The position numbers were made by a program, and so were the translations under genes. The notes beneath the pieces were generated by a model. It searched no databases and was not told the DNA's origin. It saw nothing but the letters and a program-made list of their open reading frames with translations. Positions 1-23,285 of a stretch of DNA of 64,000 nucleotides are shown one piece after another. Positions within the stretch are counted from its first letter, which is position 1; each line of letters opens with the position of its first letter. This stretch comes from Mugil cephalus. Taxonomy: Eukaryota; Chordata; Actinopteri; Mugiliformes; Mugilidae. The stretch lies in the NCBI RefSeq assembly GCF_022458985.1, contig NC_061777.1:13853668-13917667 (forward strand), written 5' to 3'.

Positions 1-236
1 GGAGGCTCGACGATCAGCAGGGAGACATGGGAGCCGGACTGCAAGCCGTAGTAGGACAAAGGTTTGTTGTCGTCACTGAGAGTTTTCGTCTGGCCGATTA
101 CAAACATCAGCTTCTGTTTGTGGACAGGCACCTTCAGTAGATTATGGATTTGTGTTTTCAGGGATCCAACAGTGTCCTGTGGGTTCACAATCAGCCTGTG
201 GGACATCCCATCCAGTGTTTTGATGATCAGTTCCAT
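1..236 (-). CDS. isg15: ISG15-like ubiquitin-like modifier, copy 1 (3' part outside window)
   Basis: This is the N-terminal part of an ISG15-type protein with tandem ubiquitin-like domains. The start codon is at 236 and the frame is open to the window edge, covering all of the first ubiquitin-like domain and the linker start. The protein begins MELIIKTLDG and reads VSLLIVE at the edge, as in the complete copies downstream. ISG15 is an interferon-induced modifier that acts inside cells by conjugation and outside them as a cytokine-like protein. Compared with other copies it has local changes (Ile for Asn after MFV, Lys in the QTKTLSDD loop). The upstream leader and promoter match the other copies. 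Whether its C-terminus ends in LRGG cannot be seen here. Confidence 0.9.
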   Translation of the reverse strand, partial: MELIIKTLDGMSHRLIVNPQDTVGSLKTQIHNLLKVPVHKQKLMFVIGQTKTLSDDNKPLSYYGLQSGSHVSLLIVEP

Positions 237-239
237 CTT

Positions 240-530
240 AACAGTCTGAAAGAGAATTCAAAATATAATTTAAGATGCAACAAAAAGACATCTCTGTTAA
301 TTGTCAAATGTTGCTTCATCATTGTTCATTTTATGAAGAGAGCTTCATACCTTGGGATGATTTCTTGTCTTCCTTTTTTTGTCAGGGATGCCACTTGTCA
401 CGATGCTCAATAGCTGTGTGAAAACTTTTAGCTCCTCTATTTATATACAGTCTGACCCAGCTAATCAAAACACCCTCACCTTCATTTAAGATTCGTTTTC
501 CCTCTCTGCTTTGATTATTTTCGGTTTCTA
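240..530 (-). promoter_or_regulatory. ISG15 copy 1 leader and promoter (TATA 438-448, ISRE 519-528)
   Basis: Reading on the minus strand, an ISRE of the form GAAACCGAAA lies at 519-528. A TATA-type TATATAAA lies near 438-448. A non-coding exon then ends at a GTATG donor, and a short intron ends just upstream of the start codon. A second IRF-like half site (GAAAACGAA) lies at 492-500. ISREs bind the ISGF3 and IRF factors, so interferon control is inferred. Confidence 0.75.
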
Positions 531-2368: not shown

Positions 2369-3084
2369 TTTATTTATATTTAATTTTTTACAATTTCTGG
2401 GTAACATGGATTTTTCAAAATAAAAGCATAACATTGATCTCCTGTGTGTATGGAATGACTTTGTTGTCAGCTAAACAAAACAAAGTTATTACGGCGGAAT
2501 TACACATCGTGGAATGCGTCGATAATTTATATTAAAAATACTAATAAAAATAAAAAAAAAAAAAAAGTATAAAGAATTAATTTCCTGGTGTGTCGCCCAC
2601 TATGTCCTCAGCCTCCTCTCAGTCGGAGGGTCATGTAGATGGTGCTGTGCGCCCTCACGTTGTAGTCCGACAGTTTTCCAGTTGTCATCTCCTTGCCTTC
2701 GTGAATGAACCTCCGCTGGCTCACCGGTACCCCCTCCCTCTGCTCCACTCTCCGCTTGAAGTCGTTCACCGTCTCGTTGGGTTTGATATCGTAGGTGCTC
2801 GTCTGCCCGTCCACGTTCCTGAGGAACACCTGGATGATAGGAGGCTCGACGATCAGCAGGGAGACATGGGAGCCGGACTGCAAGCCGTAGTAGCACACAG
2901 GTTTGGTGTCGTCACTGAGAGTTGTCGTTTTGCCGTTTACAAACATTAGCTTCTGTTCGTGGACAGGCACCTTCAGTAGATTATGGATTTGTGTTTTCAG
3001 GGATCCAACAGTGTCCTGTGGGTTCACAATCAGCCTGTGGGACGTCCCATCCAGTGTTTTGATAAAAAGTTCCATCTTAACAGT
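2369..3084 (-). CDS. isg15: ISG15-like ubiquitin-like modifier, copy 2 (CDS 2608-3075)
   Basis: The single coding exon encodes 155 residues: ubiquitin-like domain 1 (about 1-75), a short VEPPI linker, then ubiquitin-like domain 2 (about 82-155). It ends LRLRGG directly before TGA, so no C-terminal processing is needed for conjugation. The acceptor at 3084 joins a non-coding exon ending at 3190 (GTATG donor), so the coding region itself is intronless. An AATAAA poly(A) signal lies at 2369-2374 on the minus strand. The upstream neighbour on the plus strand is UNG-like gene A. Differences from the other copies include FIKTLDG at the N-terminus and HNLLKV. The gene looks intact. Confidence 0.95.
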
Positions 3085-3189: not shown

Positions 3190-3366
3190 CTTGGGATGAT
3201 TTCTTGTCTTCCTTTTTTTGTCAGGAATGCCACTTGTCGCGATTCTCAATAGTTATGTGAAAACTTTTAGCTCCTTTATTTATATACAGTCTGACCCAGC
3301 TGATCAAAACACCCTCCCCTTCATTTAAGAATCATTTCCCTCTCTGCTTTGATAACTTTCGGTTTC
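3190..3366 (-). promoter_or_regulatory. ISG15 copy 2 leader exon, TATA (3278-3288) and ISRE (3357-3366)
   Basis: The minus strand shows GAAACCGAAA at 3357-3366, TATATAAA near 3280, and a non-coding exon of about 60 bases ending with CAAG/GTATG at 3190. The second upstream IRF-like site seen in copies 1, 5 and 6 is degenerate here. Confidence 0.8.
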
Positions 3367-3925: not shown

Positions 3926-4367
3926 ATCTTCGAGGGGAAATTTTATTAGGCTGATTTTTTTATTGTTGAATTTTATGAGGTTGGACTTTTTTTTTATGTA
4001 ATCTACATTTACCTAGCAATTTATATTCAAACTGATGGCACAGAAATACTTATATAGGAAGTCACGATGGGTTTGCCCATAGTATATACAATAAAATGGA
4101 CAGAACACATTCTTTTTATGAGGACAATAAAAGTAAGGACAACGTCTGGAATGTAACCCCGCGGTATCGCGTACGTCCAGGATTTTCGCGTGATCTTGTG
4201 ATATGGCAAGATCGCAAGCCAGCGCTCCGCTGCCGTTCCGCGCCCGTGACGCGCCCGGTGGGTGTTGACGCCGAGCGGAGGACGGTCCAGGTGGATTTTC
4301 GGGTAAATCCAGTTTCGCATCCGGCTGTACGTTTCTTACCAGCTCTCAATACATTAAAGTAATACAG

Positions 4368-6931
4368 AAGAAGCTTAAGCCCTCTGCGACGGAGCCGGAG
4401 CCGCCGAGGCCGTCCCCTACGTTTCTGTCTCCGAAGCAGCTGGACAGGATCGCCCGCGACAGGTGAATCGCGATGGAGAGACTCGCTTCCGCACAGACCC
4501 CACCGGGGATCGGAGAGAGCTGGAGACAGGCGCTGTCTGCTGAGTTTGGGAAGCCTTATTTCAACAAGGTCAGGGTGCCAGTCAGTACGTTGCACATGGA
4601 GTGTGTGTATGTGTGTATGTGTGTGTGTGTGTGTGTGTTTTATTTGTTTTGTTTTGTTTGTTTTTACAAGTTTTAATGAGAGCACGTCTCTGTCACAGCT
4701 GATGAACTTTGTGTCTGAGGAGAGGCAACGTTACGTTGTGTACCCACCTGATGAACATATCTTTACCTGGACACAGACGTGTGACATCCGAGATGTAAGT
4801 TTTAATTGCGTTGTGCTGGGCGTTGCCTGACATGCGCAGACTTAGCAAAATGCTAGACAACACAAGTGACTGAAATGGGAGTTGTCAAATTAATAGAAAT
4901 GTGTATCAGTACAACACAATACAATTTAATGTTATACAAACCACAGCCTCCAGATGAAAACACATAATTATTTTTCTGAATACAATAACCTCCACAAAGA
5001 TGATATTTAGTGCAGGACTGTTATATTACAGTGCATTCATTTTCATTAGTGTACCTATTGAACTGGCAAGTGCGTGTTCAAAGCCTCTAATACAGTCATA
5101 TGTGTATGTAATATATAGTGTATAGTGTGTTATATTCAGTTTACAGACACAACAGAGCCTCTGTTACTGGCAGCAGGCCTGTCATTGTACATAATATGCT
5201 GTTTTTGCCCACTTTTGTGATTTTGTTTTTTACTCTTTTTGTTATTTTATTCTCTTGCTCTTAGTTTATGTACCCCTCTTCGCCTCCTAATTGCTCTTCG
5301 GGGATAAATAAAGTTTTTTCTGATTTTGATTCTAAATCAAGTAATTGAACAATTGACAAACCTTTTTTATTATTATTATTATTATTTAACATTTATTCCT
5401 TCACAAAACTTAAATATTACATCTCAAGTAATGCAGCAAGTAATGCATGTGATATTTTTGACACAGTAGAAACATTTGGAAAGAGTTTATATAGCCTGCG
5501 TATATTTCCTATACAGACAAAACCAGTTGTAGTTTTCAAACAACAACAGCGACGCTTAGTGGCAGGAGGTCATTTTTCACTTAATCTATGTATTGATGCG
5601 TCTATAGAGCATCGAGGAGACAAATTGGATTGTAACCACTGAAGAAATTTGGCACATTTTTACCAAAATACATACAGTCATTATCACTACTTTCATTACT
5701 AATTAAAATTGTGCGTCCTGTTTGTGCAAATTTATGCTGAGGGGTTCAGGATGGACAGATAGTTACCTGGATTTCCTTTTTTTTTTTTTTTCAACGATTA
5801 AAAGTGTGCTATGTAACGGTGTCCTTAAATCTTTAATTGTTAATTATTTGTCACTGTTTTCTCATCTAAAGATGTGTTTGTAATTCCAGGTCAAAGTGGT
5901 GATTCTTGGCCAGAATCCATACCATAATCCTGACGAGGCCCATGGGTTGTGTTTTAGTGTCAAATGGCCAACGCTTCCTCCACGCAGGTTTGAAGCCTTT
6001 TGAGTTTCTCAGATAGGAAACAACACATACCACTATTTTTTTTTATTCTTAGATTGTTTGACTTGACAAGATTAAAACTTCCAATTTGCGAAGTGAATAA
6101 CATTGAAGATAGTTTCCTGTTAACCTGGGTCCTGGCATTTATCTTTATGTTACTTTGATACGTTCCACCACCTGAACACCAAGAACACATGATCATACTT
6201 TGCATCTTGCATCCTGGTGCCAGATGTTCCCCAGAAGTGCAGGATAGACATACAGCAATCCAAATCTAATTGTGCTGTTAAGTCAGTATTTCGATTTAGT
6301 TTCTTCAATTTTTATGTTTCCAGTTTGCAGAATATATACACAGAGCTGGTCTCTGACATTGACGGCTTCCAGCCCCCTAAACATGGAGATCTGACTGGAT
6401 GGGCCAAACAAGGTACTTTTTAAATATAGTCTGCTGAACATTTACACACAGTTACACAACAAGGGAACTGTCTGACATTAACAAAGCGTCTCTTTTCTCA
6501 ATCTGTGACTCCGCTCACCAGGTGTGCTGTTGCTCAATGCTGCGCTGACCACCCGAAAAGGCAAGTCTAATACGCACAAAGACAAAGGCTGGGAGACCTT
6601 CACTGACGCTGTGGTGCAGTGGCTCAGCAACAACATGGAAGGCCTCGTCTTCATGCTGTGGGGAGTGGAAGCTAAGAGGAAAGGAGCTTCTATCGACACA
6701 GTGAGTCCATACAGTTGTGTTAATGCAAATTCTTTCAGCTGTGTTTATTATTTATGTTTTCATGCTCAGTTTTCACACTCTTTTTTACAGAATCGCCACC
6801 ACGTGCTGCAAGCTGCGCATCCATCTCCCCTGTCCGCTCGTCGGGGTTTTTTTGGGTGCCACCATTTCTCAAAGGCCAACGAGCTGCTCAAGAAATCTGG
6901 AAAGTCTCCCATTGACTGGAAGGCACTTTAA
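4368..6931 (+). CDS. UNG-like uracil-DNA glycosylase paralogue A, catalytic Asp replaced by Asn
   Basis: The exons I resolve are 4368-4568 (from an acceptor at 4367), 4699-4794, 5890-5987, 6324-6412, 6522-6700 and 6791-6931. From Met 4473 they join to a 232-residue frame. The product aligns along the whole vertebrate UNG catalytic domain: [46 protein letters not shown] and the C-terminal IDWKAL. The water-activating motif is GQNPYHN instead of GQDPYHG (Asp to Asn, Gly to Asn). The Gly-Ser loop reads WGVEA, with Ser lost. The HPSPLS minor-groove loop, the uracil-binding Asn and the thymine-excluding Tyr are kept. The 5' exon contains [12 protein letters not shown] followed by an in-frame TGA (4464-4466), exactly where UNG continues. 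Only an N-terminally shortened product from Met 4473 is possible on this transcript. It is either a recent pseudogene or a non-catalytic uracil-DNA binder. The plus-strand gene is flanked by minus-strand ISG15 genes. Confidence 0.85.
4600..4638. repeat. (GT)n microsatellite in UNG-like A intron
   Basis: A GT-rich run sits just after the 4568 splice donor. UNG-like B has a shortened version at 12050-12062. Confidence 0.8.
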
Positions 6932-7751: not shown

Positions 7752-8482
7752 TTTATTTATATTTTATTTTTCACAATTTCTGGGTAACATGGATTTTTCA
7801 AAATAAAAGCATAACACTGAATCTTGTGTGTGTGGAATGACTTTGTTGTCGGCTAAACAAAACAAAGTTATTAAGGCGGAATTACACATTGTGGAATGCG
7901 TCGATGATTTATATTAAAACTACTAATAAATATAAAATAATTATAAAGAATTAATTTCCTGGTGCATCGTCCTCCATGTCCTCAGCCTCCTCTCAGTCGG
8001 AAGGTGAGGTAGATGGTGCTGTGCGCCCTCACGTTGTAGTCCGACAGCTTTCCAGCAGACATCTCCTTGCTTTCGTGAATGAGCCTCTGCTGGTTCACCG
8101 GTACCCTCTCCCTCTGCTCCACTCTCCGCTTGAAGTCATCCACCGTCTCGTTGGGTTTGATATCGTAGGTGCTCGTCTGCCCCTTCTCGTTCTTGAGGAA
8201 CACCTGGATGATAGGATTGATGGGAGAGTTGATGGGAGGAGGCTCGACGATCAGCAGGGAGACATAGGAGCCGGACTGCAAGCCGTAGTCGCACAAAAGT
8301 TTGGTCTCGTCACTGAGAGTTGTTTTTTTGCCGTTTACAAACACCAGCTTCTGTTTGTGGACAGGCACCTTCAGTAGTCTATGGATTTGTGTTTTCAGGG
8401 ATCCAACAGTGTCCTGTGGGTTCACAATCAGCGGGTGTAATGTCCCATCCATTGTTTTGATAATCAGTTCCATCTTAACAGT
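7752..8482 (-). CDS. isg15: ISG15-like ubiquitin-like modifier, copy 3 (CDS 7982-8473)
   Basis: The single coding exon encodes 163 residues and ends FRLRGG. It has the two ubiquitin-like domains of the family but a linker eight residues longer than copies 2, 4 and 6, made of the repeated NSPINPI-type motif (8210-8240). Copy 5 carries a similar expansion (PPINPP). A poly(A) signal is at 7752-7757 on the minus strand. The gene lies tail-to-tail with UNG-like A. It looks intact and conjugation-competent at its C-terminus. Confidence 0.95.
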
Positions 8483-10852: not shown

Positions 10853-11329
10853 TCAGCCTGCTCTCAGTCGGAAGGTCAGGTAGATGGTGCTGTGCGCCCT
10901 CACGTTGTAGTCCGACAGCTTTCCAGCAGACATCTCCCTGTCTTCGTGAACAAGCCTCTGCTGGCTCACCGGTACCCCCTCCCTCTGCTCCACACTCCGC
11001 TTGAAGTCGTTCACCGTCTCGTTGGGTTTGATATCGTAGGTGCTCGTCTGCCCCTTCTCGTTCCTGAGGAACACTTGGATGATAGGAGGCTCGACGATCA
11101 GCAGGGAGACATGGGAGCCGGACTGCAAGCCGTAGTAGGACAAAGGTTTGGTGTCGTCGCTGAGAGTTGTCGTTTGGCCGTTTACAAACATCAGCTTCTG
11201 TTTGTGCACAGGCACCTTCAGTAGTCTATGGATTTGTGTTTTCAGGGATCCAACAGTGTCCTGTGGGTTCACAACCAGCCTGTGGGACGTCCCATCCAGT
11301 GTTTTGATGATTAGTTCCATCTTAACAGT
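10853..11329 (-). CDS. isg15: ISG15-like modifier, copy 4, C-terminus LRAG (CDS 10853-11320)
   Basis: The single coding exon encodes 155 residues and the two ubiquitin-like domains are intact. The terminal motif is RLRAG before TGA, whereas the other complete copies end RLRGG. A single base (GGA to GCA in the sense strand, near 10861-10863) explains it. In ISG15 and ubiquitin the terminal Gly-Gly is adenylated by the E1 enzyme and forms the isopeptide bond. The penultimate Gly is needed for efficient activation and deconjugation, so this copy may be poorly conjugated and act mainly unconjugated. It lies head-to-head with UNG-like B, whose first recognisable exon is only about 0.6 kb away. Confidence 0.93.
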   Translation of the reverse strand, partial: TVKMELIIKTLDGTSHRLVVNPQDTVGSLKTQIHRLLKVPVHKQKLMFVNGQTTTLSDDTKPLSYYGLQSGSHVSLLIVEPPIIQVFLRNEKGQTSTYDIKPNETVNDFKRSVEQREGVPVSQQRLVHEDREMSAGKLSDYNVRAHSTIYLTFRLRAG

Positions 11330-11435: not shown

Positions 11436-11612
11436 TTGGGGTGATATCTTGTCTTCCTTTTTTGTTCAGAGATGCCACTTGTCACGATGCTCAATAGCTG
11501 TGTGAAAACTTTTAGCTCCTCTGTTTATATACAGTCTGACCCAGCTGATTTAAACACCCTCCCCTTCACTTACGATTCATTTTCCCTCTCTGCTTTGATT
11601 ATTTTCGGTTTC
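11436..11612 (-). promoter_or_regulatory. ISG15 copy 4 leader, TATA (11524-11531) and ISRE (11603-11612)
   Basis: The minus strand shows GAAACCGAAA at 11603-11612 and TATATAAA near 11524. UNG-like B begins about 340 bases further right in the opposite direction, so this is a possible shared divergent promoter. Confidence 0.75.
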
Positions 11613-11955
11613 TATTTTCCAAACATTACTCCACTATAAAATGCGTGTTTTGATCACGCAGCATTGCGTCACCACCTAACAGGTTTATTAGGCAGGTGTT
11701 GCAGGTGTGGCGGAGGAGAAACAGCTGGGCTGGGACAAGGGACTTTCTTTTTTTAACTAATCTGTTCAAGTCCAAGCTACTTTAAGAAGTTGTTTAGAGG
11801 GAAACAAAGCCAGACTTGTAGACTTTGCCGTTCCGCGCCCGTGACGCGCCCGGTGGGTGTTGACGCCGAGTGGAGGACGGTCCCGGTGGATTTTCGGGTA
11901 AATTCAATTTCGCATCCGGCTGTACGTTTCGTACCAGTTCTCAATACATTATCGG

Positions 11956-14344
11956 ATCGGAGAGAGCTGGAGACCGGCGCTGTCTGCTGAGTTTGGAGAG
12001 CCTTATTTCAAAGAGGTCAGGAGGCCAGTCAGTACGTTGCACATGGAGTGTGTGTGTGTGTTTTGTTTGTTTTGTTTGTTTTTACAAGTTTTAATGAGAG
12101 CACGTCTCTGTCACAGCTGATGAACTTTGTGTCTGAGGAGAGGGAACATCACGTTGTGTACCCACCTGATGAACATATCTTTACCTGGACACAGACGTGT
12201 GACATCCGAGATGTAAGTTTTAATTGCGTTGTGCTGGACGTTGCCTGACATGCGCAGACTTTGCAAAATGCTAGACAACACAAGTGACTGAAATGGGAGT
12301 TGTCAAATTAATAGAAATGTGTATCAGTACAACACAGTACAATTTAATGTTATATTAACCACAGCCTCCAGATGAAAACACACAATTATTTTTCTGAATA
12401 CAATAACCTCCACAAAGATGATATTTAGTGCAGGACTGTTATATTACAGTGCATTCATTTTCATTAATGTACCTATTGAACTGGCAAGTGAGTGTTCAAA
12501 GCCTCTAATACAGTCATATGTGTATGTAATATATAGTGTATAGTGTGTTATATTCAGTTTACCGACACAACAGAGCCTCTGTTACTGGCAGCAGGCCTGC
12601 CATTGTACATAATACGCTGTTTTTGCCCACTTTTGTGATTTTGTTTTTTACTCTTTTTGTTATTTTATTCTCTTGCTCTTAGTTTATGTACCGCTCTTCG
12701 CCTCCTAATTGCTCTTCGGGGATAAATAATTTTTTTTCTGATTTTGATTCTAAATCAAGTAATTTGACAATTGACAAATCTTTTTTTTTATTATTATTAT
12801 TATTTAACATTTATTCCTTCACAAAACTTAAATATTACATCTCAAGTAATGCAGCAAGTAATGCATATGATATTTTTGACACAGTAGAAACATTTGGAAA
12901 GAGTTTATATAGCCTGCGTACATTTCCTATACAGACAAAACCAGTTGTAGTTTTCAAACAACAACAGCGACGCTTAGTGGCAGGAGGTCATTTTTCACTT
13001 AATCTATGTATTGATGCGTCTATAGAGCCTCGAGGAGACAAATTGGATTGTAACCACTGAAGAAATTTGGCACATTTTTACCAAAATACATACAGTCATT
13101 ATCACTACTTAAATTACTAATTAAAATTGTGCGTCCTGTTTGTGCAAATTTATGCTGAGGGGTTCAGGATGGACAGATGGTTACCTGGATTTCCCTTTTT
13201 TTTTTTAAACGATTAAAAGTGTGCTATCTAACGATGTCCTTAAATTATTAATTGTTAATTATTTGTCACTGTTTTCTCATCTAAAGATGTGTTTGTAATT
13301 CCAGGTCAAAGTGGTGATTCTTGGCCAGAATCCATACCATAATCCTGACGAGGCCCATGGGTTGTGTTTTAGTGTCAAAAGGCCAGTGCCTCCTCCACGC
13401 AGGTTTGAAGCCTTTTGAGTTTCTCAGATAGGAAACAACACATACCACTATTTTTTTTTATTCTTAGATTGTTTGACTTGACAAGATTAAAACCTCCAAC
13501 TTGCGAAGTGAATAACATTGAAGATAGTTTCCTGTTAACCTGGGTCCTGGCATTTATCTTTGTTACTTTGATACGTTCCACCACCTGAACACCAAGAACA
13601 CATGATCATACTTTGCATCTTGCATCCTGGTGCCAGATGTTCCCCAGAAGTGCAGGATAGACACACAGCCATCCAAATCTAATTGTGCTGTTAAGTCAGT
13701 ATTTCGATTTAGTTTCTTCAATTTTTATGTTTCCAGTTTGCAGAATATATACAAAGAGCTGCTCTCTGACATTGACGGCTTCCAGCACCCTGGACATGGA
13801 GATCTGACTGGATGGGCCAATCAAGGTACTTATTAAATATAGTCTGCTGAACATTTACACACAGTTACACAACAAGGGAACTGTCTGACATTAACAAAGC
13901 GTCTCTTTTCTCAATCTGTGACTCCGCTCACCAGGTGTGTTGTTGCTCAATGCTGCGCTGACCACCCGGAAAGGCAAGTCTAATACGCACAAAGGCGAAG
14001 GCTGGGAGTCCTTCACTGACGCTGTGGTGCAGTGGCTCAGCAACAACATGGAAGGCCTCGTCTTCATGCTGTGGGGAGTGGAAGCTAAGAGGAAAGGAGC
14101 TTCTATCGACACAGTGAGTCCATACAGTTGTGTTAATGCAAATTCTTTCAGCTGTGTTTATTATTTATGTTTTCATGCTCAGTTTTCACACTCTGTTTTA
14201 CAGAATCGCCACCACGTGCTGCAAGCTGCGCATCCATCTCCCCTGTCCGCTCGTCGGGGTTTTTTTGGGTGCCAGCATTTCTCAAGGGCCAACGAGCTGC
14301 TCAAGAAATCTGGAAAGTCTCCCATTGACTGGAAGGCACTTTAA
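11956..14344 (+). CDS. UNG-like uracil-DNA glycosylase paralogue B, catalytic Asp replaced by Asn, 5' deleted
   Basis: Exons are about 11956-12015, 12117-12212, 13305-13402, 13737-13825, 13935-14113 and 14204-14344. All five introns keep GT-AG ends and frames. The protein carries the same GQNPYHN motif and WGVEA loop as paralogue A, and the same [15 protein letters not shown] and IDWKAL. Exon 3 ends KRPVPPPR, closer to canonical UNG than KWPTLPPR of paralogue A, and exon 4 has FQHPGHGDL. Relative to A, about 220 bases of the 5' exon are deleted, removing both the premature TGA and the usable ATG. No in-frame ATG precedes IGESW after the upstream TAA. The first in-frame Met is at 12120, giving at most 199 residues unless another 5' exon is used. 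The catalytic change was therefore present before duplication. Confidence 0.85.
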
Positions 14345-15302: not shown

Positions 15303-15803
15303 TCAGCCTCCTCTCAGTCGGAGGGTCAGGTAGATGGTGCTGTGCGCCCTCACGTTGTAGTCCGACAGTTTTCCAGTTGTCATGTCCTTGCCTTCGTGAA
15401 CGAGCCTCTGCTGGTTCACCGGTACCCTCTCCCTCTGCTCCACACTCCGCTTGAAGTCGTTCACCGTCTCGTTGGGTTTGATATCGTAGGTGCTCGACTT
15501 CCCCTTCTCGTTTATGAGGAACACTTGGGTGGGAGGATTGATGGGAGGATTGATGGGAGGATGCTCGACGATCAGCAGGGAGACATAGGAACCGGACTGC
15601 AAGCCGTAGTCGCACAAAAGTTTGGTGTCGTCACTGAGAGTTGTCGTTTGGCCGTTTACAAACACCAACTTCTGTTTGTGGACAGGCACCTTCAGTAGTC
15701 TATGGATTTGTGTTTTCAGGGATCCAACAGTGTCCCGTGGGTTCACAATCAGTGGGTGTAATGTCCCATCCAGTGTTTTGATGATTAGTTCCATCTTAGC
15801 AGT
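15303..15803 (-). CDS. isg15: ISG15-like ubiquitin-like modifier, copy 5 (CDS 15303-15794)
   Basis: The single coding exon encodes 163 residues and ends LRLRGG. The linker is expanded by a duplicated NPPI-type unit; in DNA, the plus-strand motif ATTGATGGGAGG is repeated at about 15536-15560. It is the unit-2 counterpart of copy 3: same position after UNG-like B, same linker length and same HPLIVNP change. Substitutions such as FLINEKGKS in domain 2 distinguish it. It looks intact. Confidence 0.95.
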   Translation of the reverse strand, partial: TAKMELIIKTLDGTLHPLIVNPRDTVGSLKTQIHRLLKVPVHKQKLVFVNGQTTTLSDDTKLLCDYGLQSGSYVSLLIVEHPPINPPINPPTQVFLINEKGKSSTYDIKPNETVNDFKRSVEQRERVPVNQQRLVHEGKDMTTGKLSDYNVRAHSTIYLTLRLRGG

Positions 15804-22808: not shown

Positions 22809-23285
22809 TCAGCCTCCTCTCAGTCGGAGGGTCAGGAAGATGGTGCTGTGCGCCCTCACGTTGTAGTCCGACAGTTTTCCAGTTGTCATCTCCTTGCTTT
22901 CGTGAATGAGCCTCTGCTGGTTCACCGGTACCCCCTCCCTCTGCTCCACTCTCCGCTTGAAGTCGTCCACCGTGTCGTTGGTTTTGATGTCGTAGGTGCT
23001 CGTCTGCCCCTTCTCGTTCCTGAGGAAAACTTGCGTGGTAGGAGGCTCGACGATCAGCAGGGAGACATAGGAGCCGGACTGCAAGCCGTAGTAGCACAAA
23101 GGTTTGGTGTCGTCGCTGAGAGTTGTCGTTTGGCCGTTAACAAACACCAGCTTCTGTTTGTGCACAGGCACCTTCAGTAGTCTATGGATTTGTGTTTTCA
23201 GGAATCCAACAGTGTCCTGTGGGTTCACAACCAGCGGGTGTAATGTCCCATCCATTGTTTTGATGATCAGTTCCATCTTAATAGT
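22809..23285 (-). CDS. isg15: ISG15-like ubiquitin-like modifier, copy 6 (CDS 22809-23276)
   Basis: The single coding exon encodes 155 residues and ends LRLRGG. It is separated from the array by PXMP2 and is convergent with it. It lacks the linker expansion (EPPTTQVF) but shares HPLVVNP with copies 3 and 5. Private changes are DTVGFLKTQ (Phe for Ser) and DIKTNDTVDD. Upstream sequence with TATA and ISRE is preserved, so it moved as a complete gene with promoter, not as a retrocopy. A poly(A) signal lies near 22556. Confidence 0.95.
   Translation of the reverse strand, partial: TIKMELIIKTMDGTLHPLVVNPQDTVGFLKTQIHRLLKVPVHKQKLVFVNGQTTTLSDDTKPLCYYGLQSGSYVSLLIVEPPTTQVFLRNEKGQTSTYDIKTNDTVDDFKRRVEQREGVPVNQQRLIHESKEMTTGKLSDYNVRAHSTIFLTLRLRGG

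What the first reader, a model, noticed from the sequence alone, without database searches (positions are those of the whole stretch)
5890..5987. Catalytic aspartate of UNG replaced by Asn in both paralogues
Both copies read GQNPYHN where vertebrate UNG has GQDPYHG. This Asp (human 145) activates the attacking water, and its mutation severely impairs human and E. coli enzymes. The uracil-binding Asn (LLLNAALT), the Tyr excluding thymine and the HPSPLS loop are retained, while the Gly-Ser loop Ser is Val. The pattern fits a protein that binds uracil-DNA but cuts poorly. The change is shared, so it predates the duplication, and the frame stayed open afterwards.
Basis: partly seen in the sequence, partly recalled or inferred. 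Interest (0 to 1): 0.85.

Follow-up and report, generated by a model that had tools for sequence, protein, structure and literature searches.

The report
Altered duplicate of a DNA-repair enzyme
Next to the normal gene for a uracil-removing DNA-repair enzyme, this fish-like genome carries two shortened extra copies in which the key catalytic residue and much of the neighbouring DNA-contacting surface have changed; one could still make a protein, the other looks broken.

Summary
In detail: both window copies read GQNPYHN. A canonical ung (GQDPYHG, with nuclear PIP-box and mitochondrial starts) lies about 6 kb left of the window; the copies are tandem duplicates of it inside an ISG15-like array. 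Copy C (4473-6931) lacks the nuclear and mitochondrial first exons and has an in-frame TGA, then a CTG-to-ATG change that could start a 232-aa catalytic domain. Copy D has no in-frame ATG in its exon-1 remnant and is probably a relic. Pairwise dN/dS is near 1 (1.17, 0.95), which alone would say pseudogene. But 17 of 23 shared substitutions lie within three residues of Ugi/DNA-contact residues, exons have no indels, introns are less diverged than exons, and C and D each fit the UNG family better than all 1000 neutral simulations. Recombination among copies is shown, so divergent islands kept against gene conversion fit as well as fast adaptive change. C's own branch gives mixed evidence. Weak excision is likely; uracil-DNA binding is unproven because the contact face changed. 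Transcription and other fishes could not be tested.

The parts
4473..6931 (+). Copy C: exons 4473-4568, 4699-4794, 5890-5987, 6324-6412, 6522-6700, 6791-6931; possible 232-aa UNG catalytic domain from ATG 4473 (context GCGATGG), with an in-frame TGA four codons upstream
   Evidence: UDG domain PF03167 66.6 bits; ung equivalog TIGR00628 281.4 bits, cut-off 185.75
5890..5987 (+). Copy C exon with GQNPYHN (human D145 position)
11952..14344 (+). Copy D: exon-1 remnant 11952-12015 without in-frame ATG, exons 12117-12212, 13305-13402, 13737-13825, 13935-14113, 14204-14344
13305..13402 (+). Copy D exon with GQNPYHN
4140..4290 (+). Dispersed repeat abutting the 5' end of copy C; part of it (4231-4356, with exon-1 sequence) is shared with D
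   Evidence: 41 matches listed, of which 3 are the query itself and copies D and A, 38 elsewhere in the genome
2608..3075 (-). ISG15-like (two ubiquitin domains) gene, head-to-head with copy C
10853..11320 (-). ISG15-like gene head-to-head with copy D; C-terminus LRAG instead of LRGG
11603..11612 (-). ISRE-like GAAACCGAAA about 340 bp from the D exon-1 remnant (equivalent at 3357-3366, about 1.1 kb from the C start)
   Evidence: the motif count in the window, 8 against 5.24 expected, is not above chance (16 of 100 shuffles reach 8)

Best explanation
C and D descend from a 5'-truncated tandem duplicate of the neighbouring canonical ung, amplified together with ISG15-like genes. SHOWN: the duplication, the absence of the nuclear and mitochondrial first exons, the shared D145N, the concentration of shared substitutions beside the contact residues, recombination among copies. 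INFERRED: the ancestor of C and D was a working protein-coding gene whose selected difference from UNG is its contact face; that face either changed fast under selection or was kept as divergent islands while recombination with the canonical gene levelled introns and core. INFERRED, less sure: C still makes a catalytic-domain-only UNG-like protein without nuclear or mitochondrial targeting, which keeps the fold and the uracil pocket, excises uracil slowly or not at all, and acts by binding nucleic acid or a UNG-binding partner. D is a recently broken relic.
For: All D145N and pocket residues read from sequence. C and D score 318.8 and 319.7 against a UNG profile; 0 of 1000 neutral simulations each reach that. 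Shared changes alone: 1 of 1000; with BLOSUM62 2 of 400. 17 of 23 shared changes within 3 residues of 13 Ugi-contact residues (58 of 220 positions, p=5.6e-7); 3 of 220 sliding placements, the true one included, and 0 of 220 reflected ones do as well. No exon indels where introns predict 3.96 (A-C, P=0.019) and 3.7 (A-D, P=0.025). Nonsynonymous divergence above introns: A-C 48/539 against 56/1334, p=8e-5; C-D 23/514 against 41/1727, p=0.012. Between C and D the face changed less (2/133) than the core (20/379), p=0.046.
Against: No promoter or transcript shown; 5' truncation beside a dispersed repeat and an in-frame TGA before the putative ATG. Pairwise dN/dS of A-C and A-D near 1. C's own branch: 14 of 1000 by profile but 318 of 400 by BLOSUM62, i.e. 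no sign of constraint in the second test. With the A-D 3' flank (29/457) as yardstick, whole-gene nonsynonymous divergence is not raised (p=0.14) and the core is not significantly lowered (p=0.25). In strictly named loops only 4 of 23 changes fall (p=0.14), and shared changes are not depleted at sites over 90% conserved (5 of 23, simulation mean 0.284). Zebrafish ungb, also N-terminally short, shows no transcription (PMC12452583, passages).
Confidence: 0.45

Rival explanations
1. Both copies are pseudogenes that hitchhiked with the expanding ISG15-like array; Asp145 was lost like other residues once constraint fell.
For: Pairwise dN/dS 1.17 and 0.95; first exons missing, TGA in C, no start in D; B is a last-exon fragment; C-branch changes look random by BLOSUM62 (318 of 400); the ISG15-like genes are the repeated unit.
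Against: 0 of 1000 neutral simulations reach the C or D profile score; no exon indels; changes cluster beside contact residues.
Confidence: 0.35
2. C is a slow but real glycosylase with altered specificity, using Asn as TDG, MUG and SMUG1 do (recalled).
For: Pocket residues kept; GQNPYH also occurs in otherwise complete phage UNGs: 3 viral contigs, two of one phage type.
Against: Near-invariant residues beside Asp145 changed too (Q152E, P168R, V209T, S216T); human D145N is 1000-fold weaker; phage proteins are untested.
Confidence: 0.1
3. The clustered differences were imported by gene conversion from a diverged UNG donor now lost, without selection on the face.
For: Clusters hold synonymous changes too and codons with two or more hits; synonymous change in face codons 5/40 against 5/106 in core, not significant (p=0.10). 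Recombination among copies is shown by a switch near window 6900. Up to 12 shared changes in 36 aligned columns, against at most 10 in 5000 permutations.
Against: No other UNG gene was found at E up to 10, only two weak hits at 35-36% identity (that search scores only its best candidates). Islands lie beside the contact residues rather than at random.
Confidence: 0.07

Closest known systems
Family-1 uracil-DNA glycosylase UNG (human UNG 1akz, Atlantic cod UNG 1okb)
   Same: Whole catalytic domain; uracil-binding Asn204, Tyr147, Phe158, His268, Leu272 positions kept
   Different: Asp145 is Asn; 23 shared changes mostly beside the contact residues; no PIP box or mitochondrial start
Zebrafish ungb (PMC12452583, passages)
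   Same: A second UNG-like gene lacking the N-terminus (42 residues) on the same chromosome as the true ung
   Different: ungb is described as an Otocephala duplication, 65.6% identical and untranscribed; C and D are far more similar to A and lie in tandem in an ISG15-like array. Motif A of ungb was not seen here.
Phage UNGs with GQNPYH (L034, L036)
   Same: Asn at the catalytic Asp position with the remaining UNG motifs present
   Different: Phage genes; independent origin inferred; the other face changes are not shared
Vaccinia virus D4 (PMC4450493 and PMC1936997, abstract starts in the listing)
   Same: A UNG fold used for a catalysis-independent role
   Different: D4 is part of a viral polymerase complex; no such partner is known here
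TDG, MUG and SMUG1 (recalled)
   Same: Asn in motif A
   Different: Different motif (recalled as GINPG or GMNPG); C scores as ung

Membership tests
Family-1 UNG (sequence family) | Score above the curated cut-off of the ung equivalog model TIGR00628 (185.75) | tested here: met
   C 281.4, canonical A 306.4, D exons 2-6 262.5 bits
Family-1 UNG (active enzyme) | Catalytic Asp in motif A, GQDPYH | tested here: not met
   C and D read GQNPYH; A reads GQDPYH
Family-1 UNG (active enzyme) | Uracil-binding Asn (LLLN) and HPSPLS loop with His268 and Leu272 | tested here: met
   LLLNAALT and HPSPLS in C and D
Family-1 UNG (active enzyme) | Uracil excision activity | not testable with these tools
   Needs a bench assay
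Nuclear UNG2 / mitochondrial UNG1 | N-terminal PIP box or mitochondrial presequence | tested here: not met
   No match to A's 5' region (C8:13845000-13845559) in the window; C frame opens at ATG 4473 after a TGA
Processed or decayed pseudogene | Neutral pattern of change | tested here: inconclusive
   dN/dS near 1 for A-C and A-D, but 0 of 1000 simulations reach the profile score of C or D; C branch mixed. Introns are kept, so the copies are not processed
TDG/MUG/SMUG1-type UDG | Motif A as GINPG or GMNPG (recalled) | tested here: not met
   Motif is GQNPYH; the NCBIfam matches are uracil-DNA glycosylase models
Interferon-stimulated gene | Interferon-induced transcription | not testable with these tools
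   ISRE-like sites lie near neighbouring ISG15-like genes, but their number is not above chance

The most novel reading that the evidence does not exclude
An interferon-linked UNG derivative: a duplicated catalytic domain, placed head-to-head with ISG15-like genes bearing ISRE-like sites, has traded excision for a rebuilt contact face and serves in antiviral defence, as a decoy for viral UNG inhibitors or degraders or as a binder of viral uracil-DNA or RNA. Recombination levels the rest of the gene while selection keeps the face different.
Probability: 0.15. Interest if true: 0.8.

Novelty: new variant of a known kind. Interest (0 to 1): 0.5.

Why it matters
UNG is one of the most conserved repair enzymes. 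A vertebrate paralogue that keeps the fold but has lost the catalytic Asp and changed the contact face would be a natural test of what the UNG scaffold can do without catalysis, and a warning that automatic annotation (here an ung equivalog hit) would call it an active enzyme. If it is dead, it is still a clear case of a repair gene amplified and made mosaic inside an immune-gene array.

Tried and rejected
Rejected: no canonical ung in the genome (it is next door). Rejected as the whole story: neutral decay of C and D since duplication, though recent death remains possible. Weakened after a control: positive selection inferred from exon-above-intron divergence, because C has an A-like 3' flank (site patterns switch near window 6900) and the A-D 3' flank (29/457) is about as diverged as the average exon site (p=0.14). 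Weakened: the ISRE link, because the motif count is 8 against 5.24 expected (16 of 100 shuffles reach 8) and the copies are duplicates, not independent. Control on another gene of the same unit: the ISG15-like copies next to A and C have 15 nonsynonymous changes in 376.3 sites and 6 synonymous in 112.7, so the UNG excess (48 in 539) is not a feature of every gene in the unit.

Not used as evidence: conservation of residue 145, because the 166 profile sequences were picked by GQ[DN]PYH; the counts of sites over 90% conserved include that residue. My first face definition (44 positions, 17 of 23, p=3e-9) was drawn after I had seen the clusters and should be discounted; the figures from the published contact table and the sliding test replace it. 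The width of 3 residues was my choice; widths 0 to 4 are all (p=0.035, 1.6e-7, 2.2e-7, 5.6e-7, 8.9e-6). In the count of site patterns around window 6900 I dropped the last three 200-column blocks (from window 9017 on), where the alignment runs out.

Led nowhere: GQNPYH in papers (0 found), ISG15 with UNG in fish (listings only), UNG pseudoenzymes (listing only), Asn in TDG/SMUG1 motifs (0 found). No fish relatives are held, so age and conservation elsewhere were not tested, and the species was not identified. Structure prediction was not run: the protein is spliced and cannot be read letter for letter from the DNA.

Full report
What is there. The window lies on contig C8 of a 634.8-Mb genome in 24 contigs, taken here as a fish from the gene structure and the close match to cod UNG (inference, species not identified). 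Exon 5890-5987 reads [32 protein letters not shown], and the same motif recurs at 13323-13343. Searching the whole genome with the copy-C protein at E up to 10 gave 21 matches: 19 on C8, in four UNG copies, and two weak ones elsewhere (35% and 36% identity, E 0.175 and 1.05) (the tool scores only its best candidates).

The four copies. A, ending about 6 kb left of the window, is canonical: [18 protein letters not shown], the six exons compared open to the stop, a nuclear first exon with a PIP-box sequence (MIGQKTINSFF) and a possible mitochondrial start (MCVLLRRR...) (isoform roles recalled from human UNG). B, about 1.5 kb left of the window, is the last exon only. C and D are in the window. 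They are embedded in an array of genes on the other strand with two ubiquitin domains each (five window ORFs tested, five matched), called ISG15-like here from recall, and the whole region is a patchwork of repeated blocks. A's 5' region has no match in the window; C's exon 1 abuts a dispersed repeat. In C the old exon-1 frame meets TGA, then ATC GCG ATG, where A has CTG; that ATG, in the context GCGATGG, opens 232 codons to the normal stop. D has lost that stretch and has no in-frame ATG in what remains of exon 1. A model-based annotation would still call C a uracil-DNA glycosylase (TIGR00628 281.4 bits, cut-off 185.75).

Rates. Nei-Gojobori counts: A-C 48 nonsynonymous and 12 synonymous (dN/dS 1.17, 233 codons); A-D 43 and 13 (0.95, 222 codons); C-D 23 and 3 (2.25, 222 codons). 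Introns: A-C 56/1334, A-D 56/1332, C-D 41/1727. Nonsynonymous change exceeds introns for A-C (p=8e-5) and C-D (p=0.012), and so does synonymous change for A-C (p=0.047). Adding spacer and ISG15-like upstream DNA to the yardstick (97/3091) gives p=1.4e-8 and p=0.006, but that yardstick is unsafe: site patterns switch near window 6900 from C and D as sisters (76 sites against 19) to A and C as sisters (21 against 84; p=6e-18), leaving out the last three blocks where the alignment runs out. So C has an A-like 3' flank. With the A-D 3' flank instead (29/457), nonsynonymous divergence of the whole gene is not raised (43/515, p=0.14); only that of the contact face is (23/133, p=2e-4), and the core is not significantly lower (19/380, p=0.25).

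Where the changes fall. With A as reference, three codons set to the C/D state (two match cod and human, codon 58 matches human only), 23 amino-acid changes are shared by C and D over 220 codons. Human numbering is codon plus 72, an offset recalled from 1akz that puts the motif Asp at 145. The UNG-Ugi contact table of PMC4118823 (passages) names 144, 148, 152, 169, 214, 215, 218, 247, 250, 268, 271, 272 and 276; Ugi binds where DNA binds (same passages). Within 3 residues of these lie 58 of 220 positions and 17 of 23 changes (p=5.6e-7); at the contacts themselves 4 of 23 (p=0.035). Since the changes are clustered, I slid them along the protein: 3 of 220 placements, the true one included, and 0 of 220 reflected ones do as well. 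In the strictly named loops (144-148, 165-169, 246-247, 268-275) only 4 of 23 fall (p=0.14). So the changes sit beside the contacts more than in the named loops. After the C/D split the face changed little (2/133 nonsynonymous) and the core more (20/379) (p=0.046).

Constraint. A profile was built from 166 UNG sequences, picked by GQ[DN]PYHxxxxAHG in bacterial and viral contigs, plus cod and human. A scores 344.5, C 318.8, D 319.7. Of 1000 simulated coding sequences each, with as many amino-acid changes (36 for C, 33 for D) under neutral mutation without stops, 0 reach C (mean 276.1, maximum 304.1) and 0 reach D (mean 281.8, maximum 311.3). By branch: shared 1 of 1000, C 14 of 1000, D 7 of 1000; with BLOSUM62, shared 2 of 400, D 3 of 400, but C 318 of 400. 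Changes at sites over 90% conserved: C 5 of 36 (23 of 1000 simulations as low or lower), D 5 of 33, shared 5 of 23, simulation mean 0.284. No indel falls in exons, where introns predict 3.96 for A-C (P 0.019), 3.7 for A-D (P 0.025) and 0.74 for C-D (P 0.48); the A-C and A-D events are largely the same ones.

Reading. The shared ancestor of C and D was not drifting freely: it kept the UNG profile and the frame, and it changed beside the contact residues. Two histories fit. Either selection changed the face quickly, or C/D is an older gene whose introns and core were levelled by recombination with A while the face stayed apart. Raised synonymous change in face codons (5/40 against 5/106, p=0.10, not significant), codons with several hits and the shown recombination lean to the second. 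Both imply that the altered face once had a function. Whether C works today is open: its own branch gives mixed results and no promoter or transcript is known. Zebrafish ungb, also short of the N-terminus, shows no transcription (PMC12452583, passages).

Mechanism. D145N in human UNG2 is described as 1000-fold less active in vitro, still recruited to laser damage when full-length, and not when 94 N-terminal residues are removed (PMC3047565, passages). D145N with H268N serves as the dead control in base editors (PMC11162499, passages). C has D145N, lacks most of the N-terminus and has a changed face, so weak excision is likely and recruitment by the known route unlikely. TDG, MUG and SMUG1 are recalled to use Asn.

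Verdict. Most likely this is a UNG-derived paralogue with a functional past and weakened catalysis, possibly still made from C; D is broken. The ISG15-like neighbourhood and the ISRE-like sites (not above chance in number) make an interferon link worth an RNA experiment, no more than that yet.

Noticed in passing
L034:1685-2437 (-), L036:3322-4125 (+), L035 (same phage type as L036): Phage UNG genes that naturally read GQNPYH with the remaining UNG motifs in place; 3 viral contigs against 50 with GQDPYH under the same pattern. Possible natural slow or non-catalytic UNGs.
   Followed up: partly
window 1-240, 2608-3075, 7982-8473, 10853-11320, 15303-15794, 22809-23276 (all -), and further copies left of the window in L025: Tandem array of ISG15-like genes (two ubiquitin domains in each of the five window ORFs tested). 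The copy at 10853 and the one next to canonical ung end in LRAG instead of LRGG, so the conjugation tail may be lost.
   Followed up: partly
window about 6900: Recombination switch in copy C: upstream it is sister to D, downstream sister to the canonical unit.
   Followed up: yes
window 519, 3357, 8758, 11603, 16081, 23556 (-): Identical ISRE-like GAAACCGAAA roughly 280-290 bp upstream of the ISG15-like start codons; six duplicates, not independent, and the motif total is not above chance.
   Followed up: partly
window 4140-4290: Short dispersed GC-rich repeat with 38 listed matches elsewhere in the genome; not identified.
   Followed up: no
C8:13852173-13852325, about 1.5 kb left of the window: Copy B, a last-exon-only ung fragment that shares K259N with C and D but keeps V267 and H275 of the canonical gene, so it looks intermediate.
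   Followed up: partly
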